64,000 nucleotides of DNA from Acidobacteriota bacterium (lineage in GTDB: Bacteria; Acidobacteriota; Terriglobia; Terriglobales; Acidobacteriaceae), in contig JACPYL010000012.1 of the NCBI GenBank assembly GCA_016196065.1, positions 124,001 through 188,000 on the forward strand. The letters are read 5' to 3'. Shown here piece by piece: positions 27,080-43,017 of this stretch. The translations under genes were made by a program, and so were the position numbers. Under the pieces are notes generated by a model. That model saw only the letters and a list, made by a program, of their open reading frames with translations. It was not told the DNA's origin and ran no database searches. The number at the start of each line of letters is the position of its first letter. Positions within the stretch are counted from its first letter, which is position 1.

Positions 27080-27188
27080 GCGCCATGTTCTCAGGTCCTA
27101 ACAACAAGGCGCAAATCTCAGGGTTATCGGCGAAAAATCGCAATTACCCTCAAAACCCGGTCGAAGTGCCCACAGTCGTAGCTTACGA

Positions 27189-27578: not shown

Positions 27579-27661
27579 TTCTTGCACCCAAATTCCCGAC
27601 CCGTCCAAAAGATCGCAGGGGACCCGGTTGCGTACACTATATGCCAGTTGCTTTACCAAAT

Positions 27662-27760: not shown

Positions 27761-27798
27761 TCGTAGCGCAACAATCTCGCCAGCTATAATCCCTGCCA

Positions 27799-28356
27799 AT
27801 GGGCAGACGCGCGATCTTGGGGTTGATCTCATTGTTCGTGAGTGCTTCTCTGGAAGCGAGTGCTCAATCTAAAGCCAACGGTCTATGTCAGCTCTCGACT
27901 CTCAAAGATGGCCAGACGGTCTCACTTCTCGGGAGAGTGGGAGATGCCCCTCACGACATGGTTTTTCTACCGGCCGGATGCACTGAGACGGTTGTGCTGG
28001 TGTATGCAGGTAATTCGGAGAGTGGCGAACTGAGCGAGAAGTTGGTCAAAGATAAGAACCTCGAACGCTTCGGTAAATACACCCGCGCCACCTACGGAAA
28101 AATCGGACGAAACGGGACGTGCGCGCAATGTGCTATGTACGAGGTCCGCGCCACGCTAACAGGAAGGCTAAACGTTGCTCCTGATGTCGTCCCGCAAGGG
28201 TTGTGGAAGGACAAGCTCGGAATGCTCCATGATCAGACTGGGAAGTTCGTAGGCCAAGCTGGCTTCGGCCATCCACCCATCTGGAAATACCGACTCGCAA
28301 TCGTGTCCGTGTCGAATGTTGAAGCAAAGAAGCTTCCAGAGCCAAAGATCGAATAG
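27799..28356 (+). CDS. Secreted hypothetical protein between palindromes E2 and E3
   Basis: 185 residues: a signal peptide (RRAILGLISLFVSASLEASAQ), then a compact domain (LKDGQTVSLLGRVGDAPHDMVFLPAGCTE, GTCAQCAMYEVRATLTGRL) with a CxxC. No family recognised. It starts 38 bp after E2 and stops 6 bp before E3, the packing expected of a gene cassette. Confidence 0.65.
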   Translation: MGRRAILGLISLFVSASLEASAQSKANGLCQLSTLKDGQTVSLLGRVGDAPHDMVFLPAGCTETVVLVYAGNSESGELSEKLVKDKNLERFGKYTRATYGKIGRNGTCAQCAMYEVRATLTGRLNVAPDVVPQGLWKDKLGMLHDQTGKFVGQAGFGHPPIWKYRLAIVSVSNVEAKKLPEPKIE

Positions 28357-28362
28357 CAGTTA

Positions 28363-28460
28363 GTTGGCGTAACATCGCCATTACACTAGTTTGCGCTTTC
28401 CTTTCGCCGACCTGGCGAAGAAACGGCGCAAGCTGGTGCTAACGCCTGATTACAACAACC
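28363..28460. repeat. Cassette-border-like palindrome E3 (full, 98 bp)
   Basis: Left end GGCGTAACATCGCCATTACACTAG and right end GGTGCTAACGCCTGATTACAACA pair imperfectly. Inside, TTTGCGC/GCGCAAG and TTTCGCC/GGCGAAG form two further stems, giving a long stem with bulges. Confidence 0.65.
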
Positions 28461-28501
28461 ATCTCGAACTAGCCATCGGAGAAGCGTATAAAGTTCTAGC
28501 A

Positions 28502-28716
28502 ATGCGAAGGCGACGCGTACTCACCGGATGGCGGCTGTGGACTGGCATGGGACTGGCCACAGTTGTTTTTTCTCGGGATGGTTCAGCCTCGCGAAAGTCT
28601 TCGCTCCACATGACTCACGTTGGGATATTTCGTGGTCTGCTGTCGGGTGGACAGTGGCAGCGGTAACTGCATTCGTCCTGCTAGGGACCTATCTTGATTC
28701 TGGCAGAAAGGGTTGA
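28502..28716 (+). pseudogene. Small membrane protein with a probable frameshift at a T6 run
   Basis: ATG 28502 opens MRRRRVLTGWRLWTGMGLATVVF. After the T6 run at 28566-28571 the good reading moves to another frame, SGWFSLAKVFAPHDSRW... VGWTVAAVTAFVLLGTYL, ending at 28716. Joined, this is a plausible 71-residue protein with two membrane helices. Either the gene is broken or the homopolymer is a sequencing error. It lies between palindromes E3 and E4. Confidence 0.45.
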
Positions 28717-28729
28717 TTCGGCCAGCAGG

Positions 28730-28762
28730 TCAATGAGTGTAATCGCCTGATTTCGACAGTTA
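28730..28762. repeat. Cassette-border-like palindrome E4 (partial)
   Basis: GTGTAATCGCCTGATTTC followed by GACAGTTATGG resembles the right end of E1-E3. The left end is not seen. Confidence 0.5.
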
Positions 28763-28788
28763 TGGTGCTCCCCCTACCGCGTCATGCA

Positions 28789-28817
28789 AGAGAAAAGCCG
28801 CCCAGACATCGGGCGGC
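28789..28817 (-). terminator. Minus-strand intrinsic terminator
   Basis: GCCGCCC-7 nt-GGGCGGC; on the minus strand the stem is followed by CTTTTCTCTT. It would end transcripts coming from the gene fragment at 28951-29067. Confidence 0.7.
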
Positions 28818-28950
28818 AGGTAATCGCGTTGAAGGAATTCGGACTCGGAGCAGCGGACACCCCCTGCATGATCAGTACTCAGCTGGAATCGTTGCCCATG
28901 CATAGCACTATCAGGCTCTAAGGGGATGCCGCAACCGCGGTTGCTCGCGC

Positions 28951-29067
28951 CTATTGCTGTGCCATCCAGCCATGGACAGCGCCAGAACCATCAAACCAGT
29001 TGCCGACCATTAGGCCGGCAGCGTTAATGCCCCATCCAGATGTCAGCGCAGCCCCCGTCGGCGTTCT
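28951..29067 (-). pseudogene. Fragment of an HAF-repeat extracellular protein
   Basis: The minus strand reads LNRTPTGAALTSGWGINAAG then LMVGNWFDGSGAVHGWMAQQ and a stop. The GINAAGLMVGNWFDGSGAVHGW rhythm is that of HAF/choice-of-anchor repeats common in secreted proteins. Nothing recognisable precedes it, so only the last repeat of a once larger gene seems left. Confidence 0.45.
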
Positions 29068-29126
29068 GTTCAGAAATACGATGTGACATGTTGAGCGTCG
29101 ATGGTGTCTATTAGACTTAGAACGAG

Positions 29127-29285
29127 ATGACGAAAAATGCGCCCCAACCTCGCAACATACACTTGATCTTTTTGGCGAAAAGGCCCAAGGAGTTTTACAA
29201 GATAGTACCTGAGAAACTGAGGGAAGGTCTCAGCACTCGCAACCAGGTAATCGCCGATCTCGACCGCGCGCAAAATCGACATTAG
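29127..29285 (+). CDS. Possible small protein, 52 residues
   Basis: ATG 29127 gives a charged frame (IHLIFLAKRPKEFYKIVPEK, then LREGLSTRNQVIADLDRAQN) ending one base before the next ATG. The close spacing suggests a pair with the 107-residue frame. No ribosome site or family is visible. Confidence 0.3.
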   Translation: MTKNAPQPRNIHLIFLAKRPKEFYKIVPEKLREGLSTRNQVIADLDRAQNRH

Positions 29286-29286
29286 A

Positions 29287-29610
29287 ATGGAAATCGTTGC
29301 GCTTTCTTATGATGATGCCAAGAAGGTGGTGACCGGTGGATGGCAAACTTTCGAGCAACGGTATTCCCGCTGTCCCGGCATTATGTTGCTGGCATTGTCC
29401 GCGTTGAATGGGGAGCAAGATCAGGCGCTGTTGTACAAAGGGAATTCATCCGGAATGCTCTGTGGCGAAGACAAGCTCCTGCTAATGATGAAGAAAGACG
29501 ACATTGGTCCGTTAAGAAAGAGGCTACTGTATCGGTCTTGTAATTTGGTGCGTTTGCTTTCGCGAGGGCTTGGTTGGCGAAAAAAACGACCGTACTTTAA
29601 CAACCTTTAG
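29287..29610 (+). CDS. Possible hypothetical protein, 107 residues
   Basis: It starts just after the stop of the small frame upstream and reads MEIVALSYDDAKKVVTGGW... with a basic C-terminus. It has no recognisable domain and no ribosome site of its own. It could be translated by coupling; it could also be spurious. Confidence 0.35.
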   Translation: MEIVALSYDDAKKVVTGGWQTFEQRYSRCPGIMLLALSALNGEQDQALLYKGNSSGMLCGEDKLLLMMKKDDIGPLRKRLLYRSCNLVRLLSRGLGWRKKRPYFNNL

Positions 29611-29625
29611 TTTTCTGTAAAGCTT

Positions 29626-31257
29626 ATGGATCGATCTCAATTGGCCGTGTTTTCGTCCTTAGTTCAGGCCGCGATTCGACTGACGCTACTAGGTTGTGGA
29701 ATTGCGGTCCCCTTAGCGGATGCCCAGACCGAACAAGTTCAGAATCAGGCACCAAGGGCTGGTGCGCACGTGGTCAGCGGTACTGTCACCAATTCTGTAA
29801 CCGGAATGCCGATCGCGCGTGCCTTGGTCGAACTTGATGCCCAAACTGTTCGTCACATTCTGACAGATGCCAGCGGCATGTTCCGATTCGAAAGTGTTCC
29901 GGAAGGTTTGGCAAAACTAGAAGCGGAAAGACCCGGCTTTTTGCAACCTTCCGATGTGGGAACGGAAATGAGACGTTCCGTTAGCGTACAGGTGTCGGCC
30001 GATGTCCAAGGCATTGTTTTGAAGCTTGTGCCACAGGGTGTGTTGGCCGGATATGTTCGCTCCATCCAAGGAATACCGATAGAAGCGTTTCCCGTTCGTG
30101 TGTACTACCGAAGCGTCGTTGACGGCAAGACACGATGGCAGAAGGCGGCTTCCTTGAGCTCGGGCGAGGACGGTTATTTCCGAGTCTTCGAAATGCCCGC
30201 AGAGTCGGTTGTTGTTTCCGCTGGCCCAGAGCTCTGGCGACCCCGCCCGCCCGGAGCAAAACATCTTGGATATCCATCTGTGTTTTATCCCAATGCAAGA
30301 GGGCGCGCGGCAGCCAGTGAGATCACTGTGACGCCAGGACAGGAGGTGCAGACCGACTTTTCCTTGAGTCAGGAGCCGCTTTTCGAAGTCTCAGGAGAAG
30401 TTGCTGGCCTTCAGGAAACCATCGACACAAAGGTCGAGTTGAGCAATAGTTCGGGAGAAGCTTTGCCTCTGGTGCAGGTCCACTCGGGACGGCACGACTT
30501 CTCCGCCTATGTTACCGAGGGTAGATATACTCTGCGGGCTTCAGCTGAGGTGGACGGTCAGGCATGGCAAGCGACAGTGCCTCTAACAATCACGTCGAAT
30601 ATGGTCGGGATTCGCGTTGTGTTGGGGCGCCGACCGCCCATTGCGGTGAAAGTGCGCAACGAGTCTACCGTCAACCACAATCAAAAGCCAAATCCGTTGA
30701 CCGCCGCAGTTACTCTGACCACAGGAGCACCATCTCTCAATCCGCTCCAGTTCGTAGCCCGACAATTGGCAAATGGGGATCAGACTTCCATGGTAGTTGC
30801 TGGTGTGGAGCCGGGGAACTATTCCGTTGAAATCAGCGCGTACGGCGCCTATGTAAAATCTGCCATCTCTGGTTCTACGGACCTCTTACACGATGAATTA
30901 CTGGTTCCGGAGGATGGAGGCGTTGCGCCCGTCGATGTTGTACTGAGCGACGATGGTGGTCAGGTTACCGGAAGCGTCAAGTTGCCTGAGCATGACAGTT
31001 CGGCTACCGTACTGTTGGTGCCCGAAGCCGGGTCATCCAAAGAAGTCCGAACTGTGATCACAGAGGCAACCGGCCAATTCGAGTTCGTACAAGTCCGCCC
31101 CGGAAGTTTTATTCTGCTTGCTTTCGATCGTGTCGAAAGTTTGGAGTTTAGGAATTCGGATGTGCTGAGCAGATATCTGTCGAGTGGCGTCCACGTCAGT
31201 GTGGCAGAGAGGCAGGTGGTAACAGCAAGCCCGGAATTGATTTTGTTTGACAAATGA
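29626..31257 (+). CDS. Large secreted protein with carboxypeptidase-regulatory domains, first of two
   Basis: 543 residues. The signal region (LTLLGCGIAVPLADAQ) is followed by several beta-sandwich domains; the first is VSGTVTNSVTGMPIARALVELDAQTVRHI...GMFRFESVPEG, a clear CarboxypepD_reg unit, with weaker units near 130-180 and at the C-terminus (GGQVTGSVKLPEHD... GQFEFVQVRPGSFILLAF). Such proteins are abundant in soil Acidobacteria and are thought to be surface or matrix proteins. The stop overlaps the start of the next, related gene by 4 bp. Confidence 0.8.
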   Translation: MDRSQLAVFSSLVQAAIRLTLLGCGIAVPLADAQTEQVQNQAPRAGAHVVSGTVTNSVTGMPIARALVELDAQTVRHILTDASGMFRFESVPEGLAKLEAERPGFLQPSDVGTEMRRSVSVQVSADVQGIVLKLVPQGVLAGYVRSIQGIPIEAFPVRVYYRSVVDGKTRWQKAASLSSGEDGYFRVFEMPAESVVVSAGPELWRPRPPGAKHLGYPSVFYPNARGRAAASEITVTPGQEVQTDFSLSQEPLFEVSGEVAGLQETIDTKVELSNSSGEALPLVQVHSGRHDFSAYVTEGRYTLRASAEVDGQAWQATVPLTITSNMVGIRVVLGRRPPIAVKVRNESTVNHNQKPNPLTAAVTLTTGAPSLNPLQFVARQLANGDQTSMVVAGVEPGNYSVEISAYGAYVKSAISGSTDLLHDELLVPEDGGVAPVDVVLSDDGGQVTGSVKLPEHDSSATVLLVPEAGSSKEVRTVITEATGQFEFVQVRPGSFILLAFDRVESLEFRNSDVLSRYLSSGVHVSVAERQVVTASPELILFDK

Positions 31258-32951
31258 GTCTTATGTTCCGCAAATGGATTCTGACAACGGTGCTAGTGGC
31301 GACTGCCGCATCTGCTCAGCCATCGCCTCCGCAGGCCCCGATGAAGTCCCGAATTTCCGGGACGGTGGTGGACGCCGTTCGCGGCGAGGTCCTTCCCGAT
31401 ATTGAGGTTTCCATTCGGGTGAACAGGGCGGAGAACGCGCTGCAATCTGTGGTCACTGGGTCAGATGGACGATTTGAGTTTGGCGACTTGGCGACAGCCA
31501 AGTACTCGCTCTCCGCTCGCGGGCACGGCTACCTGCCACAGGCGTATCAGCAACACCATGGGCTGGCTACTGCTGTTGTCACTGGACCTGGGTTCGAGTC
31601 GGAAAATTTGATTTTCGGGTTGAAGCGCGACGCGTCAATCTCGGGCACCGTGACGGATGGTGTAGGAGCCCCAGTTAGTTTGGCGGAAGTCTTGCTCTTC
31701 ACGAGTTTGCCAGCCTTGACACAGGTAGTGAGGCTCAGGTCAAAACAGAAAACCGATGATGCAGGCCAGTTCCAGTTCAGTCACCTAACGGAAGGCAAGT
31801 ACTATCTGGCAGTATCTGCCCATCCGTGGTACGCGCGAGACGACTCCGAAGAGGCAGAAGGAAGCACCTCGCTCGAAGGTGAAAGAGGGCTCGCAATAGA
31901 AGAGTCCGCTCAGCCTAAGGAGGCCGTCTCCTCGCGGGGGGCGCCTATGCATTCCGAGTTGGACGTGGCCTTCCAGACACGGTACTACGTCAATGCCACA
32001 GAACCGGAACTAGCAACGCCGATTGTTCTAAAGCCCGCAGATCGGGCGACAGCGGATTTGCATCTTGTCGCCGTGCCTGCCATACGTCTTAAGATCCGAG
32101 GCGAACCCGGTTTCAAACACACGGCGGACCCCCTTGTTCTGCACGAGCGGATATTCTCCTACTCGCGGCAAGTTGTCTCCCAGAGCTTCGATCAGGACGG
32201 TGCAGAACTGGACAGCTTGGCACCAGGACGCTATCGCCTAGAACTTCCATCGCAAGGAGCGGGCGGCCTGCCACAACAGCAAATGATTGACTTGGTTGCC
32301 GATGCGGAGGTTATTCCCGGTGAAAGTAGCAAGTCCGTCAGCAGTGTTACGGGCAACGTATTGCTCGACGGAACCGAAGTGTCATGCCAGCGCTGCAATA
32401 TTCAGCTTCTGAGCCTGCCCTCTGGCGAAGCGTTTGTAGCTCGAAAAACTCCCAAGGGCTTCGAGATCGACGGAGGTGTGCGACCAGGTGTCTATTTTGT
32501 TTTAGCACTCAGCCCTGAAGACGACTATTGGGTCAAAGAGATTTCTGCGGTTGGCGCCCGAGTCTTCGGAAAACAGGTCGAGATCCAGTCCGGAGCACCC
32601 GTTCGATTATCCATAGTCATGACCAAGAATGCCGGGACGGTTGATGGGCTCGCCCTCCGCGGCGGCAAACCCGTCAGCCAAGCTGCTGTGTTTCTCGTGC
32701 CGAATGATCCCGCGCACAATCTAGACCGTTTTCGCTTCGACCAGAGCGATAGCGACGGAAGTTTTACATTCCGACGGATACTGCCCGGCGACTATACGGC
32801 CTTTGCAGTTGCTGAGGGATGGGACTTAGAGTGGACGAATCCGGCTACGCTTGGGCCTTACCTCGGCGGCGGTGTGAGAGTGCGAGTTCAGCCAGGAAAT
32901 AAAATTCGCCTTGAACTTACGGTCCAATTGCTCGCGGGCGTTTCCAACTAG
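31254..32951 (+). CDS. Large secreted protein with carboxypeptidase-regulatory domains, second of two
   Basis: 565 residues, coupled to the preceding gene through an ATGA overlap. Signal peptide (ILTTVLVATAASAQ), then CarboxypepD_reg units: ISGTVVDAVRGEVLPDIEVS...DGRFEFGDLATAKYSLSARG, ISGTVTDGVGAPVSLAEVLL, and a final GTVDGLALRGGKPVSQAAVF...GSFTFRRILPGDYTAFAVAEG. Domain order and end match the first gene, so the pair arose by duplication. The 3' end lies 34 bp from the end of the casposon polymerase. Confidence 0.8.
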   Translation: MSLMFRKWILTTVLVATAASAQPSPPQAPMKSRISGTVVDAVRGEVLPDIEVSIRVNRAENALQSVVTGSDGRFEFGDLATAKYSLSARGHGYLPQAYQQHHGLATAVVTGPGFESENLIFGLKRDASISGTVTDGVGAPVSLAEVLLFTSLPALTQVVRLRSKQKTDDAGQFQFSHLTEGKYYLAVSAHPWYARDDSEEAEGSTSLEGERGLAIEESAQPKEAVSSRGAPMHSELDVAFQTRYYVNATEPELATPIVLKPADRATADLHLVAVPAIRLKIRGEPGFKHTADPLVLHERIFSYSRQVVSQSFDQDGAELDSLAPGRYRLELPSQGAGGLPQQQMIDLVADAEVIPGESSKSVSSVTGNVLLDGTEVSCQRCNIQLLSLPSGEAFVARKTPKGFEIDGGVRPGVYFVLALSPEDDYWVKEISAVGARVFGKQVEIQSGAPVRLSIVMTKNAGTVDGLALRGGKPVSQAAVFLVPNDPAHNLDRFRFDQSDSDGSFTFRRILPGDYTAFAVAEGWDLEWTNPATLGPYLGGGVRVRVQPGNKIRLELTVQLLAGVSN

Positions 32952-32985
32952 CTTTTGGGTCTCAAGTCTCTTTTGTGAAAGCAAA

Positions 32986-35979
32986 CTAATTTGATAATCC
33001 CTCTCTCGATTTAGTGACCTGCGAGGATTCACGCTCTAGTTCTTGCATAGTCTCTGCCAGTTGGGTGCACGTACTAGGGTGAACGCGTTCTCCCCGGCGC
33101 GCTTTGATAATCGTGTCGCGACTCAGGCCGGTTCGCTCCAGTTGACTCAGGGAGAAATCGTTGAGCCTCTTCACGAGTTCAGGGGTACATGGGCGAGTCT
33201 TGAGCGTTTGGTGCCGGTGATATCGGATAGGTCCGGTGTGTTCGAGCATGCTAGGGTCTTCGCCTTCCTGGGCTCGTCTCTCAATTTCCTTTCCGATAAA
33301 GACAAATGGTGTCATCGCCGTGATGGGACGACGCAACAACAATCCCCTGGTGTAGGCATCGCAGGGCTCGCCATTGGGGGAAAGGGATTTGTCTTCCGGG
33401 TGGAGGTGATGACGCCAGATCACGCTCGAAAGCGTTTGCGGCGACAGAATCACTCCATTGAACTCTTCCGACAGATGAACCGTGATCCCACTATGGATCT
33501 CCGTATACTCCCGCGTTATCCACTCCTCGGAATTTTTGCTGGCGGGCGCAATCAAAGTGCAATTGGGCGGAGGCTGAACGAGTATCGGCGACAACGCAAA
33601 ATTGTACGGTTTGGCTGCACCCGGATCGCGCTGCCGCAAAACCTTCAGCACATTTGGTGTAGTGATGCGAACTCGCATGACGGCGGGCAAATTGTCGAAC
33701 CACAATTCGCGTGAGAGGAGCGCATTCTCGGGGTTTTCGATATTGCGGAAATGGTCGTCAATAAGGCGCTGCCATACTTCCACGATCCATCGCGGATAAT
33801 CGGTGTCCTGATCTTTGCAGTCTTCTGGTTTATACCGGGGTCGTTTGTCGGGAACGAAGACGATGCCCAGGCCATGCTCACTTGGCTTGATGATTTCAAT
33901 GCTTCGTTTCCTTCTTGTATAAACGACATATCGTTTTGCCGATATTGCCAAGCCGTATAGTTGCTGTGGTTTGCCCTTACGATCAAGATTGCAGTCTTCA
34001 ATCTTAAGAATCTCTCCAACCACGCTCTTGTCGTATGGATTCAGTCGGTTGAGTTTTGCGCAAATCTCATCGACTTGTTTCCACTTTATCGCTCGAATGG
34101 CCGGTTTCCCGTCGCTAAGTTTGTGCTGTCCGCCGGGACACGGAACCAAGCCGCCGTTCCTGGAAGCGACAAAATGCATCGAGTCCGTATCGGTTAGCAA
34201 GTAAGTGCCGCCAAGGTCTTTGACCATGTGCTCCAGGACAGCCAAAATTAACCGGCCACCGGATGTAATCAGCGCCGCCGCTGGAGCGAATTGAAATTTA
34301 CCTGGGCGTTCAACCACAAATGTTGGCTGTTCGAATCTGTGATCGCCGGAAAATACTTCCAATTGTTTAGCGGCATTTTTTCCATACTCGTATTTGTTCA
34401 ATTCCGCAAAGATTCCGTACAGTGCGTTGGCGATTATTTTCAGTAGGAGATAGTGCGGATGTGTTTTTGGCAGTTTTTTCCGTTCTTCGATTACGGTGCG
34501 GAAGAAATCGTCTTTCTCAGGATCGAACGCCCGCGTGCCGATTACCGTGGGCTTCATCCCTTCCTGTACACCGTAGGAAACGAGCCTGAACGCTTGAAGG
34601 ATTTTCGGCGTGCGCCCGGTGGCGAGTTTGGACGCAGCCAGGTCCGGTCCGGCATACCAGATCGGCTCTTTTGAACTAATCGGGTTCAAACCAATGTTGG
34701 TGCTGCCAGTATCGTTATATAGAGCACGAACCGGGAGGATGTCTGCCGATGGCTCGACTAGGGCGAAAAAGCCCAGTTCCAGCCAAGTTGAAGGGGCAAG
34801 CACCGTTTCAACATCCACATCGTTCAACGTTTTCTGGGCGGCTTTAGTGCAGTATGCAACTCCAACGTTGGATGAAATTAGCAGGGGCCAGAGGCCGAGC
34901 AATCCCGCAACCGAAGGATACTCGGACGTTGTATCACAGACCACGATGGGCACTTCCTGATGCCGTATCCGAATTTCGCTGCGGCCTCCGTAGTACGCCT
35001 GCATGCACTTGCCTAGGATATGGTCTGGTAGATCAAACTTTCGGCGTGGCTGCTCGATACCCATTTCTTCCAGAAACGCTTTGGTGATACTGGCTGCACT
35101 CATGGCTCTTTCAGGCGGGAGCTTGAGTGGAAACCCGTCATATTCGAGTTTCATCGAGTTCAGTAGTGCAACGGTGCGTTCAACATCGCGTCGACCGTAC
35201 TCCAATTCCTTTTTTGTAACGCGGCCCGTTGGCTCATGGTCCATCTTGCCTTCAAGGCCAAAAGAAGCCAGAAAACCGCCGAGGGTCATGTGTCTATTAC
35301 GGAGTGCCCAGCCCAAAACAGAGAGATCAAGGAAACGCCCGCGATAGACCGCACGGTTGTTCGGATCTCCGCCTGCCAGGCTGATGAATGCCGAGCGCGA
35401 ATCCTTCGGCTTAATTCTCACTTTTGGCCGGAAAACGTCGGAGCCGCCTTTGCGCGTCCACAGAACCATCGACCATCCGGTGTTTTTGCTCTGAGCCTCG
35501 CGATACTCCAGCGCTAGTCGACTGAGGTCGAATGGGGCATTAAAACAAACGATGGAAGCCCCGGCCTGAATGGCCTCCCAGAATTCCCCGTCGACAAACT
35601 GGGTGCGCGACTGCACCAGAATTTCCTTCGGGCATCCCTCCTCTACGTCGGCGAGTTTCTTGTGCGCGAAATTGCGAATCAACCGGACTGACTCGGCGTC
35701 CAGATTGTCTGCATACACAAGACCTTCCTGCTGGCAGACGTATGTTCCATCCTTCAGTTCGCAAAATCGCCACCACAGAAAGTTGAGATCCTGGCGAATA
35801 CCGGTTGTGGTTTCACAATCGAAGACAAGCGCAAAATTTGCCCACTTGTCTGCTAAACGGCCCTCGCCATCCGGGCGTGGTTTTTCGTTTACTACTCTGG
35901 TGTGGACCCGAAGGAAGATGGGTGCCAGTTCGGATTGAATCTTGCGCGGATGGCGACTTCCGGAAAGACTGTCGGGCAT
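32986..35979 (-). CDS. polB: Family-B DNA polymerase of the casposon-like element
   Basis: 997 residues with complete exonuclease and polymerase cores. Exo I FDCETTT (D54, E56), Exo II FNAPFD (N147, D151) and Exo III YGRRD (Y261, D265) precede a YYGG motif (329-332), which in protein-primed enzymes links the two activities. Motif A is DTTSEYP (349-355), motif B KIIANALYG (514-522) and motif C TDTDS (596-600). Key residues are intact. After the core, about 150 residues end in a helix-turn-helix-like stretch (SRDTIIKARRGERVH). It likely copies the element. Third gene of the minus-strand set after the DNA-binding protein and HNH genes. Confidence 0.93.
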   Translation of the reverse strand: MPDSLSGSRHPRKIQSELAPIFLRVHTRVVNEKPRPDGEGRLADKWANFALVFDCETTTGIRQDLNFLWWRFCELKDGTYVCQQEGLVYADNLDAESVRLIRNFAHKKLADVEEGCPKEILVQSRTQFVDGEFWEAIQAGASIVCFNAPFDLSRLALEYREAQSKNTGWSMVLWTRKGGSDVFRPKVRIKPKDSRSAFISLAGGDPNNRAVYRGRFLDLSVLGWALRNRHMTLGGFLASFGLEGKMDHEPTGRVTKKELEYGRRDVERTVALLNSMKLEYDGFPLKLPPERAMSAASITKAFLEEMGIEQPRRKFDLPDHILGKCMQAYYGGRSEIRIRHQEVPIVVCDTTSEYPSVAGLLGLWPLLISSNVGVAYCTKAAQKTLNDVDVETVLAPSTWLELGFFALVEPSADILPVRALYNDTGSTNIGLNPISSKEPIWYAGPDLAASKLATGRTPKILQAFRLVSYGVQEGMKPTVIGTRAFDPEKDDFFRTVIEERKKLPKTHPHYLLLKIIANALYGIFAELNKYEYGKNAAKQLEVFSGDHRFEQPTFVVERPGKFQFAPAAALITSGGRLILAVLEHMVKDLGGTYLLTDTDSMHFVASRNGGLVPCPGGQHKLSDGKPAIRAIKWKQVDEICAKLNRLNPYDKSVVGEILKIEDCNLDRKGKPQQLYGLAISAKRYVVYTRRKRSIEIIKPSEHGLGIVFVPDKRPRYKPEDCKDQDTDYPRWIVEVWQRLIDDHFRNIENPENALLSRELWFDNLPAVMRVRITTPNVLKVLRQRDPGAAKPYNFALSPILVQPPPNCTLIAPASKNSEEWITREYTEIHSGITVHLSEEFNGVILSPQTLSSVIWRHHLHPEDKSLSPNGEPCDAYTRGLLLRRPITAMTPFVFIGKEIERRAQEGEDPSMLEHTGPIRYHRHQTLKTRPCTPELVKRLNDFSLSQLERTGLSRDTIIKARRGERVHPSTCTQLAETMQELERESSQVTKSREGLSN

Positions 35980-36021
35980 CGGTTCTCAATCCGACTGCTG
36001 CGCGGCATCCTAAACTTCAGT

Positions 36022-36456
36022 TCAATTAATCTTGGGGTTAAGCGCAGGGTCAGACAATGATAACGCTTCCGCTTTACGACGAAGGGACGCGGCTGTTTCC
36101 TGTAACGCTTTCGCGATCAACTTGGGCGGGGTAGTCAGTACTTGTTCGGCAATCGTGTCTTGGTCTTCGGCCAACAACAATAGATAACGGCGCAGCGCTT
36201 CGAGGCCCGACTCCTTGCTACCGTGCTTCCCGTTCTTGGCGAGCCGTTTGATGTCTCTTCTGCCTTCCAATTTGCGATGACAATTGCGACAGACGACTCT
36301 CTTGAAGTCCGCATCCAGTTCCCAGGAAACGGGATGATCCGCTTCGAAACAAAAGAGATCCGATTCTGGACAGTAAAAACATCGAGTTGGATACCCCAAC
36401 TGCTTGCGGCGCATCTCCGTGCGCTTGGCTCGCGTGATGGGGTAAGGATTTTTCAC
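36022..36456 (-). CDS. HNH endonuclease of the casposon-like element
   Basis: 144 residues from GTG 36456, which overlaps the stop of the upstream gene as GTGA. The HNH core reads CFYC...FEADHPVSWELD...VVCRNCHRKLEG: two CxxC pairs for structural zinc and the catalytic DH and final H. The C-terminal half is helical. HNH nucleases accompany Cas1 and PolB in most casposons, where their role is not settled. It lies 42 bp upstream of the polymerase gene. Confidence 0.88.
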   Translation of the reverse strand: MKNPYPITRAKRTEMRRKQLGYPTRCFYCPESDLFCFEADHPVSWELDADFKRVVCRNCHRKLEGRRDIKRLAKNGKHGSKESGLEALRRYLLLLAEDQDTIAEQVLTTPPKLIAKALQETAASLRRKAEALSLSDPALNPKIN

Positions 36457-37025
36457 GCGCTCGCGTCCGGACTGACGTAAAGAGTATCGAGCTGCCCCAC
36501 GTCACCCGCTTGGCCAAGGGATAACAGCAACTCATAGTCACTAATCAGTTCATGGCCGCCAATCTTCTTCCCGCGATACTGCCCCAGAGCCGACGGCGGT
36601 TCTTTCCCCTGCAGTACGCGTAAGTACGTCGCGCGGTGTTGTCCCGCGAGCTCGCGCTCACGAGAGCCGCGTGCGTTCACCGACAAGGCTCCTCGGTCAG
36701 TTAGGATTTGCACCGTGGCGGAGTATCTGTCGCTCGCTTTTACGCGAATGCGACCGCCCGGTCGGTCCTGAATCAGTGCGTTGGGGACCAGTTTTCGCAT
36801 TGCTCTCACGGTGGTTCCCTCCGCGCGTGCGGCTCTGGTAGCTGACTTCGCTTCTCCCCGGCGGATTCGATTAAGAGCGGCAAGAACGCGTACTCTTTCT
36901 TCTTGTTGACGCCGGGAAGGGCCACGGTCGCCCTTCTTGGCTTGGTTACTTGAGCGGTGTCGTGAATGTTTGGCCTTCTGGCGCGAAGGCCGCGTCTTTC
37001 GCGAATTGGAATTTCGAGGACTCAT
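36453..37025 (-). CDS. Basic DNA-binding (HTH-like) protein of the casposon-like element
   Basis: 190 residues from ATG 37025. The first 45 are strongly basic (SRKTRPSRQKAKHSRHRSSN); a helix-turn-helix-like section follows (VLAALNRIRRGEAKSATRAARAEGTTVRAMRKLV), then a beta-rich region and a conserved-looking GKKIGGHELISD segment. It probably binds element DNA as a regulator or replication accessory; the exact role is unknown. The frame is open to 37106, but that would overlap the divergent gene. Confidence 0.7.
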   Translation of the reverse strand: MSPRNSNSRKTRPSRQKAKHSRHRSSNQAKKGDRGPSRRQQEERVRVLAALNRIRRGEAKSATRAARAEGTTVRAMRKLVPNALIQDRPGGRIRVKASDRYSATVQILTDRGALSVNARGSRERELAGQHRATYLRVLQGKEPPSALGQYRGKKIGGHELISDYELLLSLGQAGDVGQLDTLYVSPDASA

Positions 37026-37104
37026 GAGCTGAATCTCTCGTTGATTCAGCCTGCGAGCAATGAGAAAATAGAACTGTTGGCACGCTTTGGCATGAGTTTC
37101 TTCC
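37026..37104. promoter_or_regulatory. Shared divergent promoter region of the casposon-like element
   Basis: 79 bp separate the outward-facing starts of the two gene sets and must hold both promoters. No clear -35/-10 pair could be chosen by eye. The basic HTH protein encoded at its left edge is a candidate regulator. Confidence 0.45.
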
Positions 37105-37971
37105 ATGGGACATCGAGGGCCAAAACCGGTCGCAATCGGCTTAATGACGACCTGGGAATTCGAGTTCTACAAGGCCTTCCGGTCGTTGCGAGACGGAAGA
37201 TCGCTTCCCTCCCAGTCAGCTTCTCCCGCAACTGGGCTTAGCAGGCAGCAACTCCGCTCCTTCATCGGACGACTAAAGCAAATGAACCCAGACCACTATT
37301 GGCTGACGACTCAACGCCTTACGAAAGAAATGGGCTATCCTGTGACGCTCTCACGGCCACCAGTGAGCGTTCAGCTACAGTGGGCCGAACAACAGAAGGA
37401 AGAAGAAATCCGGTCTCTGGCAATGGAATTGAACCCTCCTGGCCTGCGGGCTTTGGACAGACGACGGAAGATCTGGGACGACCTGATTAGAGCTGTCACC
37501 TATGCCGCTCTTCGGAAGGCTTGCGGACGTTGGGCCCAGTTGGCGGATGTTCGGAGTTCAGGAACTACCCCGTATCCCCGACATATCGTTCGGAACGCTG
37601 CGGCGTTTCTTATGATGAAGAGAAACGAAAGGTTTCCCAAATCGACCTATGGTGACGATGCCCGCGTGGATTATTTGGCGCGCGGGATGGCTGGAGTGCT
37701 CTGCGATCTCAGCCCCATGACTGGTATTGAGCGCTTACGCAACATGCAGCACAATCGGACTGGGCCGCTCTGGGTGACGCGTGAGGGAAATCGAGAGTTA
37801 CCAGAACGCGAGCGGTATTGCGGCTGCTGGCGATGCAAGATTGAGAAATCGAGCAAGCTTACGGAATTCATGCGTTCTGGATACGACAACGGTTTGAAAG
37901 TCTTTATGGAACTCTCCGCCACCACCAAGGTTCCAGTCGAGTGGCGTGCGAAGCGTTCCCGATTGGTCTAA
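37105..37971 (+). CDS. Unknown protein encoded ahead of cas1
   Basis: 288 residues, basic and without signal or membrane segments. It has an N-terminal helix-turn-helix-like stretch (SASPATGLSRQQLRSFIGRL), a helical middle (WDDLIRAVTYAALRKACGRWAQL) and a CGCWRCK cysteine cluster near 257-263. I recognise no family. It is 82 bp upstream of cas1 in the same direction, so the two are probably one transcript. As a conserved-position partner of Cas1 and a polymerase that may need a protein primer, it is worth testing as a terminal protein or an integration cofactor. Confidence 0.7.
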   Translation: MGHRGPKPVAIGLMTTWEFEFYKAFRSLRDGRSLPSQSASPATGLSRQQLRSFIGRLKQMNPDHYWLTTQRLTKEMGYPVTLSRPPVSVQLQWAEQQKEEEIRSLAMELNPPGLRALDRRRKIWDDLIRAVTYAALRKACGRWAQLADVRSSGTTPYPRHIVRNAAAFLMMKRNERFPKSTYGDDARVDYLARGMAGVLCDLSPMTGIERLRNMQHNRTGPLWVTREGNRELPERERYCGCWRCKIEKSSKLTEFMRSGYDNGLKVFMELSATTKVPVEWRAKRSRLV

Positions 37972-38053
37972 GAGAGTTTGAAATACGAAAACGGGCCTGC
38001 CGTCTGTTCGAAGCAGCCGACAAGCCCTAACCACCAATGGAGAGTGAACTCCG

Positions 38054-39583
38054 ATGGCAGCTACGAAAACCGTACCGCAACTACCGCAATCCCACAATTC
38101 ACTAGTGCCCCGTCACGGCGTCGTAACGCTTTTTGGCTACGGCATCCAGGTCCGCGTTGATCGCGGTCACCTTCTGTTGGAGGACGGCATCGGAGCCGAG
38201 CGTTGCCAGTATCGTCTTCCGCGCGTCGGACACGGCCTTAAACGTCTAGTTGTTATCGGCTCGGACGGGAATGTTTCGTTGGCCGCGCTCCGTTGGCTGG
38301 CGGATCAAAAAGCCGCTTTCGTCATGCTGGAGCGTGACGGCTCGGTCGTGGCAGCAATTGGACCGGTTCGCCCATCTGATGCCCGACTTCGCCGCGCTCA
38401 ATCACTGGCGGGCCAATCAGGAGCTGCAATCCGGATCGCTCGGGAACTCATCGACAGAAAACTTGCCGGACAAGAGGAAGTGGCTCGTCAAAAACTGCAT
38501 GCCACGCAGATCGCCGACACAATTCACCGCTACCGATCTGAGTTGGCAGAAGCTGACACGACGGAGTCCATAAGATTAGTAGAATCGAAGGCGGCTGGTG
38601 CTTTTTGGTCTGCTTGGCGAAGCTTGCCTATTAGCTTTCCAAGAAAAGACGAGCTACGAGTTCCGGACCACTGGCGGACTTTCGGCGCACGGGTATCACC
38701 TTTGACAGGGTCCCCTCGTCTAGCGGTTAACCCACCGAACGCAATACTCAATTATCTCTACGCGATTCTCGAATCCGAATCTCGGTTGGCTGCGGCTGCT
38801 CTTGGCCTCGACCCCGGAATTGGCGTCCTACACGTAGACACCCCTGCTCGCGATAGCCTTGCCTGCGATCTCATGGAAGTTGTTCGTCCCCAAGTGGACG
38901 CATTCGTACTGGACTGGATCACTCGCGAACCTCTGAAACGAGAATGGTTCTTGGAGCAGCGGGACGGCAATTGCCGCCTTATGGCAGATCTCGCTATCCA
39001 GCTTTCTGAAACTGCGCCGACATGGAGTCGGGCGGTCGCGCCAATTGCTGAATGGGTCGCCGAGGTACTGTGGTCGCGAAGTCGGAAACCAATCGGTTCG
39101 GCTTCACTTCCTACTCGCTTGACTCAACGGCACAAACGCGAGGCGAAAGGTATGTCATCGGAGCCCTCTCCGATTCCGCACCTACAGAGGGCGAACCTTT
39201 GTCGCGGGTGCGGGAAGACAATCCGGATGGGGCGCACAAACTGTGCAGAGTGCGCAGTTGGCGCGGCGACAGAACGCCTGGCTAGTGCCTCGAGACTTGG
39301 CCGCACGGCTGCGCGCAGCCCGGCGGCACGCGCTAAGCATGCGACTTCGCGGAGGCGGCACGCGCAGGCATGCTCGGACTGGGACGCATCGACGCAGCCA
39401 GCCTGGCTTACGAGCGAAGTGTTCTTACACCAAATCCAGCCCCTGCTCTCGAACATTTCAACAACTGCGATTCGAGCACGGATTGGTGTCTCGCGCTGGT
39501 ATGCAAGCAAGATTCGAAAAGGTTATGCTTCACACCCAAGGCATTGGCAAGCTCTGGCCGAGTTGGTTGGCATCGGGATGTGA
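38054..39583 (+). CDS. cas1: Cas1 homologue (casposase-like integrase) with zinc and HTH tail
   Basis: 509 residues; Cas1 proteins of CRISPR systems are usually 300-350. ATG 38054 follows a GGAGAG site. Residues 20-100 form the N-terminal beta domain (RHGVVTLFGYG...LAALRWLADQKAAFVML). The catalytic domain has E177 (RLVESKAAGAFW), H260 (GLDPGIGVLH) and E275 (CDLMEVVRP), after NPPNAILNYLYAILESESR. From about 380 there is a CRGCG...NCAEC zinc-ribbon-like motif and at 470-505 a helix-turn-helix (ARIGVSRWYASKIRKG...HPRHWQALAELVG). Casposases carry a comparable C-terminal HTH. No cas2, effector or array is in the window. Confidence 0.93.
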   Translation: MAATKTVPQLPQSHNSLVPRHGVVTLFGYGIQVRVDRGHLLLEDGIGAERCQYRLPRVGHGLKRLVVIGSDGNVSLAALRWLADQKAAFVMLERDGSVVAAIGPVRPSDARLRRAQSLAGQSGAAIRIARELIDRKLAGQEEVARQKLHATQIADTIHRYRSELAEADTTESIRLVESKAAGAFWSAWRSLPISFPRKDELRVPDHWRTFGARVSPLTGSPRLAVNPPNAILNYLYAILESESRLAAAALGLDPGIGVLHVDTPARDSLACDLMEVVRPQVDAFVLDWITREPLKREWFLEQRDGNCRLMADLAIQLSETAPTWSRAVAPIAEWVAEVLWSRSRKPIGSASLPTRLTQRHKREAKGMSSEPSPIPHLQRANLCRGCGKTIRMGRTNCAECAVGAATERLASASRLGRTAARSPAARAKHATSRRRHAQACSDWDASTQPAWLTSEVFLHQIQPLLSNISTTAIRARIGVSRWYASKIRKGYASHPRHWQALAELVGIGM

Positions 39584-39693
39584 TCAGCATCACCGACGAA
39601 CGCCATTGTCTCACTAGAATATCCCATTGTGTTAGACTCCTGCGCTTTTTATCCAGCTCGTTCTAGACTCGAGAGAGTCTGGTTAGAAAACAT
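39584..39693. other. Candidate right end of the casposon-like element
   Basis: The 110 bp between cas1 and the next gene include TAGACTCGAGA at 39664-39674, the complement of which matches TCTCAAGTCTC at 32960-32970 in 9 of 11 positions. If these are terminal inverted repeats, the element is about 6.7 kb. The match is short and no target duplication is seen next to it. Confidence 0.3.
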
Positions 39694-42600
39694 ATGAGAG
39701 AAATCCGTGGAAGTGCCAGGTTACACATCATCGTCCTTTGGCAAGTACTGGGAGTGTCTTTGGTGACGATGCTTGGTTGTGGCGGCGGCAGCTCAGGTGG
39801 CGGTGAGCCGCCCCCACCACCGAAACCCGATTTCAGTTTGGCGGTCCAACCGACTATGCAAACTTTGGCGGCTGGAAGTTCCGTTTCTGTTTCTTTGTCC
39901 GCCACGGCACGGAACGGTTTCTCATCTCAAATCACGGTTCGAGTGACGGGACAACAAGGTGGCGTCTCAGTATCGCCTCAGAATTTCACACTCACTCCCG
40001 GCACTCCACAAACAGTTACACTTATGGCTGCTGTTAATACCCCCACGAGCAGCGCTAATGTTGATCTTTCTGGCAGTTCTGGCTCGTTGGCCCACACAGC
40101 GCAGCTAACGTTGTCGGTGAGCGGACCATATAGTGGGCCGCCGGTGCGCACTCGCTACGTGCGGACAGATGCAACAACCATTTACAGCCTCTGGTTGAAT
40201 CAGCACTGGGAAGTCTACGATCCTCCCACGGCTCGTTTCTTCGTTACCGACCCGTCTTCAAGCCATGTTTTTGTCTTGGACGATGTCACCGAGTCTGAGA
40301 TCGCCAGTATCAGCGTCCCGGGAGCCTACGGAATTGATGAATCTCCCGATCACAGCGCGCTGTACGTTGGCACGCTTATCGGAGACGTGTACGTGATTAA
40401 TCCTGTGTCGATGAAAATCACACAGCGGTACAAGGCCTCGCAAATCGGATCCAGTGGCTTTCAGGCTTGGATCGCTCTTGTTTTGGCTGACGGGCGGTTG
40501 ACACTGCTAGGGCAGCAAAACATCGTGGGCGGAGACGTTGGTTACGCTGTTTGGAATCCGTCGGACAATTCCATTAACGTATGTGTCATCGGTGCCTGCG
40601 GCGGCGGTGGTGAGGCATTCAGTTCGTCGTTCGCAACGACCGCAGATCGCACAAAGATTCTCACCGGCGGCCGGGGAGGCTTCTTTGTAATCGACCCCAG
40701 CACGCAACAAGTTAGTAGTGTTCCCGCGTTCAACGCTAGCCATATCCTGACTTCACCAGACGGAAAATACATCATTCTTCCGGGATCTAATTCCGACGCT
40801 GTTGTTTACGACGCACATACGCTCCAGCAGGTCGCTGACTTTAGCGTTGCCGGGGACGCGTCCAGCGCGTCTGGCTTCGCTGTGAGCGCGGACTCAAGCA
40901 CACTCTACACATCCGGCAACGACCACGGAGGGTTTGTTTATGCGTATAGTCTTCCCACTGGCCAAGCCCTCGGATGGACGCCGGACATGGTTGTCATCCC
41001 ACAGGGCGGTGGGTCAGCGGTCGGGCCTATTGCTACTCCCTACATGTTGGCAGTTGATGGTACGGGACTATTCGCCGGACCTCTCGAGGAAGGGGTGGGC
41101 TTCGTCGACGTGGCGACTCTGCAAGCTGCCTCTGGAGCTACGCAATTCGAGAATGGATATTTGATTCCACCAACGGGTCCAGCATCAGGCGGAACCGCAA
41201 CACAGAACGCCGACCCAAACGTGGTCGGCACGCTGCAGAGCGTATATTTCGGCTCGCAACAGGCGACCGGCCTTTCTCTCGGCCCGCAATTTACGATCAA
41301 CGCCACCAGTCCTCCGGGTCCGGCGGGTCCTGTGGATGTCTACACGTTCACAGCCGACGGCGGTATGCAATTGCTTCCGGAGGCTTTCAGTTACGGCCCG
41401 ACGATCCTCCAAGTAACGCCGAGTATGGCCACGCAGGAGGGTGGAGGAACCGGGTACATTTACGGCTATGGATTCGGTACGAACGCAAAGGGTATTCCGG
41501 CCGATTTGCAGCTCACGATGAACGGCAGTCCAGCTACTATCACTTCTTACAGTTACTTCGGCTATCCCTTTCAAGCGGCTCCATACCCCATGGAAGTTTT
41601 CACCTACACGATTCCACCGAGTGCAAGTGGAGCGAGTGATGTCACGGTCACCACCACTTCGGGAAGTGCCACTTCTCATGGGGGATTCACATACCTTCCT
41701 CCGACGCAGCAGTTTCCGTTAGCAGGCGCCGAACTAGTTCAGGGTATTTACGATCCTCATCGTGCCTTGTACTACTTTACGGACAATAGCCAAATTGACG
41801 TGTTTTCGCGTACGCAGGGAAAGTGGTTGTCGCCTATTGCGATTCCTGCCCCTCAGGGAGCGACACAGCGGCTGTGGGGAATCTCACTTTCGCCAGATGG
41901 CAGCAAGCTGGCGGTCTCTGATGCCTCGGCAGGTGTCATCTATCTCCTAAACCCATCCAATCCGGCCTCCGTGAAGACATTCACGGTGCAAGTCATTAAC
42001 CCTGCCGGCAATTTGAATCCCTGTGGGCTCGCCGTTAGCAACTCTGGGATCGTTTATTACTCTATGTTTGGTGGCGCAACAGGTTATTACAAACTCAACA
42101 CAAATAGCGGGACCATTACAAACTATGAGACCGGCCCGGCGGTTCAAGACGGCGCCTATCTGCGAGCAGCAATCACTGCTGACAATTCAACCGTGTTCTT
42201 TAACAGCATTGGATATCTTGTCAGCATTGATACCGCAACCGATGTCCTATCACTGGTCGCGGTCAAACCATTGTGCTGTGGGAACAATGAGCTGTCGCTA
42301 TCGAACAACCAGCTGCAGGTTGTATCTAGTTCATATCTTTATGACTCAGCCCTAAATGCGGAATCATTTTACGCGTTGAACGATCGTGAAATTCAGCACA
42401 TTGCCTATGCTTATGGCGCAAAGATGAGTGCTGATGGGCGGGTCGTGTTCCAGCCATCGACGAACGGGATTGACGTGCTCGACGGCAGATTAGGAAACCT
42501 GCTCCAGCGCGTTTCACTGCCTTTCCCTCTTTCAACGAACTATGATGCACTGGTCGATGACGGCCAGGACAATATTCTGATTGCAATCACGAGTGCGAAT

Positions 42601-42822
42601 GGCAGCGGAATCGCAATTGTTGATTTAAGTTCCATCCCGGAGCCGCCCGCATTGATGTACAACGGGAGCGCTTTCCAGGCACCTCGTACCACCAGTTCGG
42701 AAGAATATCCGCGAGCTTGGCAAAAACAGACCATAAGCGTTTCCACGGCGAAACGTTTCGCAACAGGGCAAGTGCGCACAGTTCCACACGTCACGAAACT
42801 ATTCCGGGCGATGACCAATTAG
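39694..42822 (+). CDS. Secreted beta-propeller/IPT lipoprotein
   Basis: 1042 residues. The signal ends in a lipobox (VTMLGC) with a Gly/Pro-rich linker. An Ig-like domain follows (LAAGSSVSVSLSATARNGFS), then YVTN-type propeller repeats (LDDVTESEIASISVPGAYGI, then ESPDHSALYVG), an IPT/TIG-like segment near 560-670 and a second propeller half. Typical of acidobacterial cell-surface proteins; ligand unknown. It lies just outside the casposon-like element, and a truncated copy of the 90-bp palindrome follows it. Confidence 0.8.
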   Translation: MREIRGSARLHIIVLWQVLGVSLVTMLGCGGGSSGGGEPPPPPKPDFSLAVQPTMQTLAAGSSVSVSLSATARNGFSSQITVRVTGQQGGVSVSPQNFTLTPGTPQTVTLMAAVNTPTSSANVDLSGSSGSLAHTAQLTLSVSGPYSGPPVRTRYVRTDATTIYSLWLNQHWEVYDPPTARFFVTDPSSSHVFVLDDVTESEIASISVPGAYGIDESPDHSALYVGTLIGDVYVINPVSMKITQRYKASQIGSSGFQAWIALVLADGRLTLLGQQNIVGGDVGYAVWNPSDNSINVCVIGACGGGGEAFSSSFATTADRTKILTGGRGGFFVIDPSTQQVSSVPAFNASHILTSPDGKYIILPGSNSDAVVYDAHTLQQVADFSVAGDASSASGFAVSADSSTLYTSGNDHGGFVYAYSLPTGQALGWTPDMVVIPQGGGSAVGPIATPYMLAVDGTGLFAGPLEEGVGFVDVATLQAASGATQFENGYLIPPTGPASGGTATQNADPNVVGTLQSVYFGSQQATGLSLGPQFTINATSPPGPAGPVDVYTFTADGGMQLLPEAFSYGPTILQVTPSMATQEGGGTGYIYGYGFGTNAKGIPADLQLTMNGSPATITSYSYFGYPFQAAPYPMEVFTYTIPPSASGASDVTVTTTSGSATSHGGFTYLPPTQQFPLAGAELVQGIYDPHRALYYFTDNSQIDVFSRTQGKWLSPIAIPAPQGATQRLWGISLSPDGSKLAVSDASAGVIYLLNPSNPASVKTFTVQVINPAGNLNPCGLAVSNSGIVYYSMFGGATGYYKLNTNSGTITNYETGPAVQDGAYLRAAITADNSTVFFNSIGYLVSIDTATDVLSLVAVKPLCCGNNELSLSNNQLQVVSSSYLYDSALNAESFYALNDREIQHIAYAYGAKMSADGRVVFQPSTNGIDVLDGRLGNLLQRVSLPFPLSTNYDALVDDGQDNILIAITSANGSGIAIVDLSSIPEPPALMYNGSAFQAPRTTSSEEYPRAWQKQTISVSTAKRFATGQVRTVPHVTKLFRAMTN

Positions 42823-42853
42823 GGCTGGCTGGAGAAAACCTCGGATCCCGAAG

Positions 42854-42908
42854 ACGGGAGGGGGTCGACAATTTTTCCCGAAGTGTACTACCCCGTCATC
42901 CGTTTGAC
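42854..42908. repeat. About 90-bp palindromic element, copy C (half)
   Basis: GTCGACAATTTTTCCCGAAG, TGTACTA and CCCCGTCATCCGTTTGAC match the complement of the right half of copy B, then the similarity stops. It lies at the right edge of the accessory block, 110 bp before valS. Confidence 0.75.
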
Positions 42909-43017
42909 CCTGCTTTTCACCCGCCTGTAAGATCAAACATTCCTCCCTTCACCAGAAATCTGCCGAGCGGGGCTTGGCTTCGATGGTTGAGGGTGGTGGT
43001 TTCTATAAAGACAAAAC

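What the first reader, a model, noticed from the sequence alone, without database searches (positions are those of the whole stretch)
32986..39583. Casposon-like element in a probable acidobacterium
Five genes in a compact divergent block: PolB, HNH nuclease and basic HTH protein on the minus strand; an unknown protein and a Cas1 homologue on the plus strand. Seen: complete exonuclease and polymerase motifs in PolB, HNH cysteines and histidines, and the Cas1 triad E177/H260/E275. Known: Cas1 with a family-B polymerase, HNH nuclease and HTH protein is the gene set of casposons, whose Cas1 acts as integrase. Most described ones are archaeal. Absent in the window: cas2, effector genes and CRISPR repeats. 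Inferred: a self-synthesising transposon of a possibly undescribed bacterial group.
Basis: partly seen in the sequence, partly recalled or inferred. Interest (0 to 1): 0.95.

Follow-up and report, generated by a model that had tools for sequence, protein, structure and literature searches.

The report
Bacterial casposons that target gene promoters
A soil acidobacterium carries a 17-kb jumping element that appears to use a relative of the CRISPR memory enzyme Cas1 to insert itself, and it and its relatives land almost exactly on the start signal (the -35 box) of gene promoters, often stacking up there in rows much as CRISPR memories do.

Summary
The five-gene block is real and is the core of a casposon, but the element is far larger than reported. 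A 42-nt perfect terminal inverted repeat (TIR) and a 14-nt target duplication (TSD) place its ends at 25680 and 42894 (17.2 kb), about 120 nt upstream of valS. A core-less element (19781-25665) and the end of a third sit behind it in tandem; the 14-mer occurs three times in the 5.5-Mb genome, all here. Of 30 loci scanned, window included, 15 were delimited by TIR plus a 13-14-nt TSD. One relative's 16.4-kb element is missing, with a single 14-nt target left, from a genome about 97% identical over 20 kb of flank; a second site searched gave no empty copy. So the group is mobile. Every TSD has TTG at the same place, 12 of 15 end in TTGAC, and a -10-like hexamer follows 17-18 nt outward at 16 of 17 element-host boundaries (p=5e-12 against TTGAC sites of the same loci). 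Targets include promoters of valS, thrS, tRNA-Ala and tRNA-Gln; one exception lies inside a coding gene. Arrays seem to grow at the promoter end. I file it as a bacterial casposon resembling family 3, with a promoter target not described in the papers I could read.

The parts
25680..42894 (.). element A: casposon with complete core, 17,215 bp
   Evidence: perfect TIRs and 14-nt target duplication
25676..25717 (+). left terminal inverted repeat of A (42/42; its outer 4 nt overlap the target duplication)
42857..42898 (-). right terminal inverted repeat of A
25666..25679 (+). target duplication GTCATCCGTTTGAC between elements B and A
   Evidence: 3 copies in the whole genome, all here
42895..42908 (+). 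target duplication, promoter-proximal copy; ends in TTGAC of the putative valS -35 box
32986..35979 (-). family B DNA polymerase with HTH-like C-terminal tail (tail by eye)
36022..36456 (-). small HNH-type nuclease (CxxC...DH...CxxCH, by eye)
   Evidence: weak PHROG HNH match 0.022
36453..37106 (-). basic HTH protein with homologues in relatives
   Evidence: low-confidence model
37105..37971 (+). X, unknown protein in a slot whose content differs between elements
38054..39583 (+). Cas1 integrase (casposase-like) with C-terminal zinc cysteines and HTH
25853..32951 (.). cargo left of the core: TspO/MBR protein, carboxypeptidase-regulatory-like proteins
   Evidence: four ORFs scanned
39694..42822 (+). 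cargo right of the core: large beta-propeller/TIG-like protein
   Evidence: matches below curated cut-off
19781..25665 (.). element B: 5,885-bp tandem element without cas1, own TIRs, same 14-nt target on both sides
19767..19780 (+). target duplication between elements C and B
20892..21365 (+). PolB C-terminal fragment inside element B
19729..19766 (-). right end of a third element C (inner limit approximate; no left end found)
   Evidence: end score 0 of 100 shuffles
42904..42933 (+). putative valS promoter (TTGACC-18-TAAGAT)
   Evidence: conserved upstream of valS in many relatives; scored; not mapped
43018..45963 (+). valS, host gene behind the target

Best explanation
A casposon: a DNA transposon that encodes Cas1 and its own family B polymerase. 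Shown from sequence: TIRs; 13-14-nt target duplications; insertion at a promoter -35 box so that the host gene keeps a complete -35/-10 pair; repeated insertion at one promoter giving tandem arrays; an occupied and an empty site in two close relatives. Inferred from known casposases: Cas1 joins the element's ends to both strands at positions 14 nt apart, the promoter side acting like the 'leader' that casposases and CRISPR Cas1 need; gap filling makes the duplication; PolB copies the element; HNH, HTH protein and X help with end processing or target choice. Each insertion rebuilds the target next to the promoter, so the next one enters there and older copies move away and decay. Core-less elements with similar ends and a leftover PolB fragment (such as B) are probably moved by Cas1 acting in trans.
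For: TIR plus TSD in 15 of 30 loci (window included) by an unguided inverted-repeat scan; TSDs 14 nt in 12 and 13 nt in 3. Empty site: G329 matches the joined flanks of the G233 element at 100% over 614 nt; over 20 kb it aligns to the two G233 flanks at 97.1 and 97.6%, overlapping by exactly 14 nt where G233 has 16,368 bp. Target: 17 of 17 boundaries (15 delimited elements plus both sides of G539) have TTG at positions 10-12 and 14 of 17 have TTGAC; a -10-like hexamer follows at 17-18 nt in 16 of 17, mean score 5.18 against -3.5 for 1792 TTGAC sites of the same loci (targets among them), p=5.2e-12; 11 non-redundant sites p=3e-8 (-10 weights recalled). Six further promoter-side ends from an end scan all fit. 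Another casposon end lies on the promoter-distal side of 12 of 16 elements. 11 of 21 family genomes with a recognisable valS -35 carry a casposon-like end abutting it; 8 of 15 further genomes of the window's genus do so clearly. The best solved match of the Cas1 profile is the M. mazei casposase 6opm, 2.3e-31, just ahead of a CRISPR Cas1, 4n06, 3.8e-29.
Against: 14 of 30 scanned loci gave no TIR/TSD (many are cut contigs or short fetched flanks), and G539 has TIRs but two different target sequences. G579 lies inside a coding gene with no -10. Of two sites searched for empty copies, one (G485) gave none spanning the junction; the window's own site was not shown empty anywhere, and its left flank found no synteny. 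-35/-10 calls are consensus matches, not mapped start sites. In the Cas1 tree the single casposase reference 6opm joins 4n06 on a long branch, not the block. Single-sequence search ranks 4n06 above 6opm. Many relatives are draft genomes. Polarity of array growth rests on a few decayed distal copies; in G503b the distal element still has most of PolB and part of Cas1.
Confidence: 0.9

Rival explanations
1. A reading within the casposon view, about targeting only: the target is recognised as a short DNA word (GTTTGAC plus a few bases), and promoters are hit because that word is common in -35 boxes; RNA polymerase or promoter geometry plays no part.
For: TTG is invariant and TTGAC present at 14 of 17 boundaries; in vitro the A. 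boonei casposase is guided by a leader motif and border bases (PMC6614799, passages).
Against: For 10 of 11 non-redundant targets only 0.1-2.2% of 1792 TTGAC sites have as good a -10 score (19.5% for G579); the sites with TTGCG (G675) and TTGAG (G233) still have a good -10.
Confidence: 0.35
2. A chromosomal Cas1-PolB defence or DNA-capture system that is not itself mobile and merely lies in a mobile island.
For: Neighbouring genes in some relatives look defence-like by eye; element B carries a SIR2-like gene.
Against: In the 15 delimited cases the core lies between TIRs and TSDs; precise empty site; Pfam named no other transposase or recombinase among the 15 ORFs of elements A and B that were scanned.
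Confidence: 0.05
3. A diverged CRISPR adaptation module that has lost cas2 and arrays.
For: Cas1 matches CRISPR Cas1 models well; 6opm does not group with the block in the tree.
Against: One Cas1 in the genome, no CRISPR-like repeats in the window, the block's Cas1s on their own branch, PolB partner, TIRs and TSDs.
Confidence: 0.03

Closest known systems
Family 3 casposons (bacteria; e.g. Ca. 'Acetothermum autotrophicum' AceAut-C1), Krupovic et al. 2014, PMC4046053 (passages and section 7 seen)
   Same: Bacterial hosts; Cas1 with zinc-binding and HTH domains at the C-terminus, as in AceAut-C1; PolB, HNH, HTH protein; TIRs; TSDs; families 3 and 4 are described as intergenic (PMC6614799, passage)
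   Different: Acidobacteriota; a near-constant 13-14-nt TSD placed on promoter -35 boxes; a variable X slot. Membership of the family 3 clade was not tested (reference Cas1s not available)
Family 2 casposons (M. mazei MetMaz-C1, A. boonei)
   Same: HTH on Cas1 and, by eye, on PolB; 14-nt targets; excision to one empty target and tandem integration are reported for MetMaz-C1 (PMC10359463, passages)
   Different: Archaeal; targets reported at tRNA genes, not promoters
Tn7 at attTn7 by glmS (comparison taken from PMC4046053)
   Same: Insertion beside an essential gene without breaking it; tandem copies
   Different: Unrelated transposase (recalled); enters downstream of the gene
CRISPR spacer acquisition by Cas1-Cas2 (recalled, and PMC6614799 passages)
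   Same: Cas1 chemistry, duplication of a short repeat, growth at the leader end
   Different: Adds short spacers and needs Cas2; here whole elements of 10-17 kb

Membership tests
casposon | Cas1 with intact catalytic residues | tested here: met
   E177/H260/D272/E275 identical in 34 of 34, window included
casposon | Cas1 not associated with CRISPR-cas | tested here: inconclusive
   one Cas1 in the genome, no CRISPR-like repeats in the window; cas2 and effectors not searched with profiles, relatives not checked
casposon | family B DNA polymerase gene in the element | tested here: met
   PF03175 3.8e-7, motifs invariant in 5 of 5; protein- or RNA-primed not resolved
casposon | terminal inverted repeats | tested here: met
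   42/42 in the window; 16 of 30 loci incl. G539
casposon | target site duplication | tested here: met
   14 nt in the window; 13-14 nt in 15 of 15 delimited; absent in G539
casposon | mobility | tested here: met
   for the relative G233 against G329, not for G485; for the window only tandem copies and a solo end elsewhere
casposon | Cas1 inside the casposase clade (Cas1-solo group 2) | tested here: inconclusive
   block apart from presumed CRISPR Cas1s (support 86), but the only casposase reference joins 4n06 on a long branch
casposon | no other transposase or recombinase in the element | tested here: met
   Pfam on 15 ORFs of A and B; others, e.g. 27799-28356, not scanned
casposon | integrase activity of the Cas1 | not testable with these tools
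   -
casposon family 3 | clade membership in the Cas1 tree | not tested
   family 3 reference sequences not available
casposon family 3 | HNH and conserved HTH genes; zinc-binding and HTH domains fused to Cas1 | tested here: met
   HNH and HTH by motif only
CRISPR-Cas adaptation module | cas2 and array beside cas1 | tested here: inconclusive
   no array in the window; no cas2 noticed in the ORF lists, not searched by profile

The most novel reading that the evidence does not exclude
A radiation of bacterial casposons whose integration complex reads a sigma70-type promoter (-35 with a properly spaced -10) as its target, perhaps by touching RNA polymerase or sigma itself, and builds polar arrays at promoters, with those of translation genes as hotspots. 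The promoter then plays the part of the CRISPR leader, which would make these arrays a living analogue of the step between casposon and CRISPR locus.
Probability: 0.5. Interest if true: 0.88.

Novelty: new variant of a known kind. Interest (0 to 1): 0.75.

Why it matters
Casposons are the proposed source of CRISPR's Cas1, yet the target sites described in the papers I saw are tRNA 3' ends, ends of coding genes or unspecified intergenic places. Here a group of soil bacteria (Cas1 match in 46 of 398 genomes of one family) carries elements that target promoters and stack up in rows there. It shows how a mobile element can use essential genes as landing sites while leaving the promoter intact, offers bacterial material for testing, and makes the leader-equals-promoter idea for CRISPR's origin testable.

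Tried and rejected
TIRs right beside the five genes (32.7-40 kb): none convincing; the ends lie kilobases out. The 227-nt inverted DUF4268-like pieces around the L002 block have no target duplication, so I do not call them TIRs. X as target selector: X falls into several sets; of ten pairings of five sets only X1-X3 shows remote similarity (hhalign E 1e-5); the set seen at the delimited tRNA promoters is also one Cas1 clade, so the link is confounded. Plasmids with Cas1 and PolB: no match; viral contigs: none (narrow patterns); the phage collection was not searched. Empty sites: G233 yes, G485 no; joined sites for G675, G579 and the window were made but not searched. Synteny of the window's left flank: one protein from it found only in its own genome among 24; tblastx of the window's first 43 kb found nothing from 1-16 kb beside valS in 16 family stretches and nothing at 1e-20 in 16 genus stretches. 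Structure models were poor (Cas1 mean pLDDT 55.7, HTH protein 63.7) and carry no claim; no fold search was run. Rfam at the G513 target: nothing. A defence-cargo reading was not pursued: the window's cargo gave TspO, carboxypeptidase-regulatory-like, SIR2-like, dehydrogenase-like and eCIS-core matches; PADLOC was run on the five core proteins only. One row (L258) was dropped before the genus count because its upstream stretch was too short.

Full report
Observation. Cas1 matches PF01867 at 2.7e-40 and PolB matches DNA_pol_B_2 at 3.8e-7; HNH, HTH protein and X have no significant Pfam match. By single-sequence search the closest solved structures are 4n06 (1.8e-20) and the M. mazei casposase 6opm (9e-20); with a profile of eight Cas1s, 6opm is first at 2.3e-31 and 4n06 second at 3.8e-29. 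The catalytic residues and four C-terminal cysteines are the same in 34 of 34 Cas1s aligned, window included. PolB motifs are invariant in five PolBs. Cas1 and PolB both end in an HTH-like stretch (read by eye).

Ends. No convincing inverted repeat flanks the five genes closely. A wider scan found a perfect 42-nt TIR at 25676-25717 and 42857-42898, with GTCATCCGTTTGAC at 25666-25679 and 42895-42908 and a third copy at 19767-19780. The whole genome has exactly these three copies. Element A between the last two is 17,215 bp. Between the first two lies element B (5,885 bp) with its own TIRs, a SIR2-like gene, an eCIS-core protein and a PolB C-terminal fragment, but no cas1. To the left of B is the right end of a third element, C.

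Relatives. 46 of 398 genomes of the same family, the window's own included, have a Cas1 match at E<=1e-30, in 13 of 79 genera. The arrangement PolB facing Cas1, with HNH, HTH and X between, recurs in the loci read, although HNH, HTH and X are often too diverged for tblastn and many contigs are cut. An unguided inverted-repeat scan of 30 loci, window included, gave TIR plus TSD in 15, TIR without TSD in one (G539), and nothing in 14. Delimited elements are 9.9-17.2 kb; TSDs are 14 nt in 12 and 13 nt in 3.

Mobility. The flanks of the G233 element, joined at the target, match G329 at 100% over 614 nt; the other 58 genomes searched beside these two matched only parts. Over 20 kb, G329 aligns to the left and right flanks of G233 at 97.1% and 97.6%, overlapping by exactly 14 nt where G233 holds 16,368 bp. 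The site is the promoter side of a tRNA-Ala gene. The same test for the thrS site of G485 in nine genomes of its genus gave no match across the junction. In the window's own genome a single TIR-A end remains at C10:1642577, again beside a -35-like word.

Target. 17 element-host boundaries (15 delimited elements and both sides of G539) were compared. All have TTG at the same place, 14 have TTGAC, and 16 have a -10-like hexamer 17-18 nt further out. The mean -10 score is 5.18 against -3.5 for 1792 TTGAC sites in the same loci, the targets among them (p=5.2e-12); with 11 non-redundant sites p=3e-8 (the -10 weights are recalled). Genes behind the promoters: valS in six species (window, G452, G464, G662, G503, G084), thrS (G485, named by eye from its start), tRNA-Ala (G233) and tRNA-Gln (G329, G687), and others. 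The exception is G579, inside a coding gene. An end-score scan of 1787 TTGAC sites picked 37 at 30 or more: 23 are ends already known, which match their own entries in the library, and 14 are new. Of the 14, six are promoter-side ends, all with a -10-like hexamer (tRNA-Gln in G094, G163 and a second G233 locus; one shared gene in G345 and G648; G503a), and eight are junctions inside arrays. Cas1 faces the promoter in 9 of 14 elements (G579 left out; table coded by hand, counted), so the element enters in either direction.

The valS hotspot. Of 60 family genomes searched, the 30 best valS matches were read; 21 of these have a TTGAC where the -35 is expected, and in 11 of the 21 a casposon-like end abuts it with 0 of 100 shuffles as good (L050 is the weakest; two of the 11 are the window and G084). 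In the window's genus, 16 further loci were fetched and one dropped; of 15, eight show an end clearly, G474 at 1 of 100 shuffles, G594 at 4 of 100, and five do not. Core-less elements with paired targets and the PolB C-terminal fragment also lie at valS in G435 and G423.

Arrays. On the promoter-distal side 12 of 16 elements (15 plus window B) meet another casposon end, 11 at 0 of 100 shuffles and G084 at 1 of 100. Distal content is decayed or core-less in the window (B, C) and G084, and only Cas1 fragments were found distally in G452 and G687; in G503b the distal element still has most of PolB and part of Cas1 up to the contig end. This fits growth at the promoter end, but the number is small.

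Mechanism. Shown: ends, duplication, site, tandem structure, presence/absence in relatives. Inferred: Cas1 as integrase needing a 'leader' next to the target. Passages of PMC6614799 report a leader motif and border bases for the A. boonei casposase; passages of PMC10359463 report excision to a single empty target and tandem integration in M. mazei. The promoter side would be the leader here. Whether a DNA word, promoter shape or RNA polymerase is read is open.

Family. Gene set and domain plan fit family 3 as described in PMC4046053 (passages and section 7) and in the review PMC9939771 (outline and section 11). The Cas1 tree (quick method) puts the 34 block Cas1s on one side of a branch (SH-aLRT 86), apart from 11 acidobacterial Cas1s presumed to be CRISPR ones and two solved CRISPR Cas1s; the casposase 6opm joins 4n06 on a long branch, so the tree does not place the block among casposons. 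PMC9755687 (passages) proposes a family 5, not compared here. [quoted passage not shown] In the three casposon papers searched for it, the word 'promoter' occurs 0 times in the main text (PMC4046053, PMC10359463, PMC6614799). By title and start of abstract, the rows listed by searches show no paper on acidobacterial or promoter-targeting casposons; PMC7305122 (passages) only cites casposons. Only open-licence papers are held, the 2016 casposon paper (PMC4779613) was not available, and several searches listed only part of their hits.

Noticed in passing
window 20892-21365; L124; L135: A PolB C-terminal fragment with about 71-74% protein identity between species is kept in core-less elements at valS; it may be a conserved small gene rather than debris.
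   Followed up: partly
L003 / L162 (G639 contig): Two cas1 genes (60 and 68% identical to the window's) on either side of one PolB gene.
   Followed up: no
L161 (G539), 5604 and 19063: TIRs without matching target duplication; both sides are different TTGACC promoters, as if two elements had recombined.
   Followed up: no
L002 4410 and 12975: 227-nt pieces of a DUF4268-like gene (named by eye) in inverted order on both sides of the block.
   Followed up: no
window 1417-9129: Five Acido-Lenti-1 RNAs left of the island.
   Followed up: no
window 17377-18126: An ORF that by eye resembles a REP-associated tyrosine transposase, left of the array.
   Followed up: no
G000:C10:1642577 (L265): Solo TIR-A end next to CTCATCCGTTTGAC/C (read outward), no partner within the 20 kb fetched.
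   Followed up: partly
G000:C10:758983 (L266): A TIR-B-like sequence with 3 mismatches that is not next to TTGAC and has no second copy in the 19 kb fetched.
   Followed up: partly
L034, L038, L158, L165, L169, L153, and the G560 join (L157/L166): Array-internal junctions TTGAC|GGG between two casposon ends; G560 has three copies of one 14-mer.
   Followed up: partly
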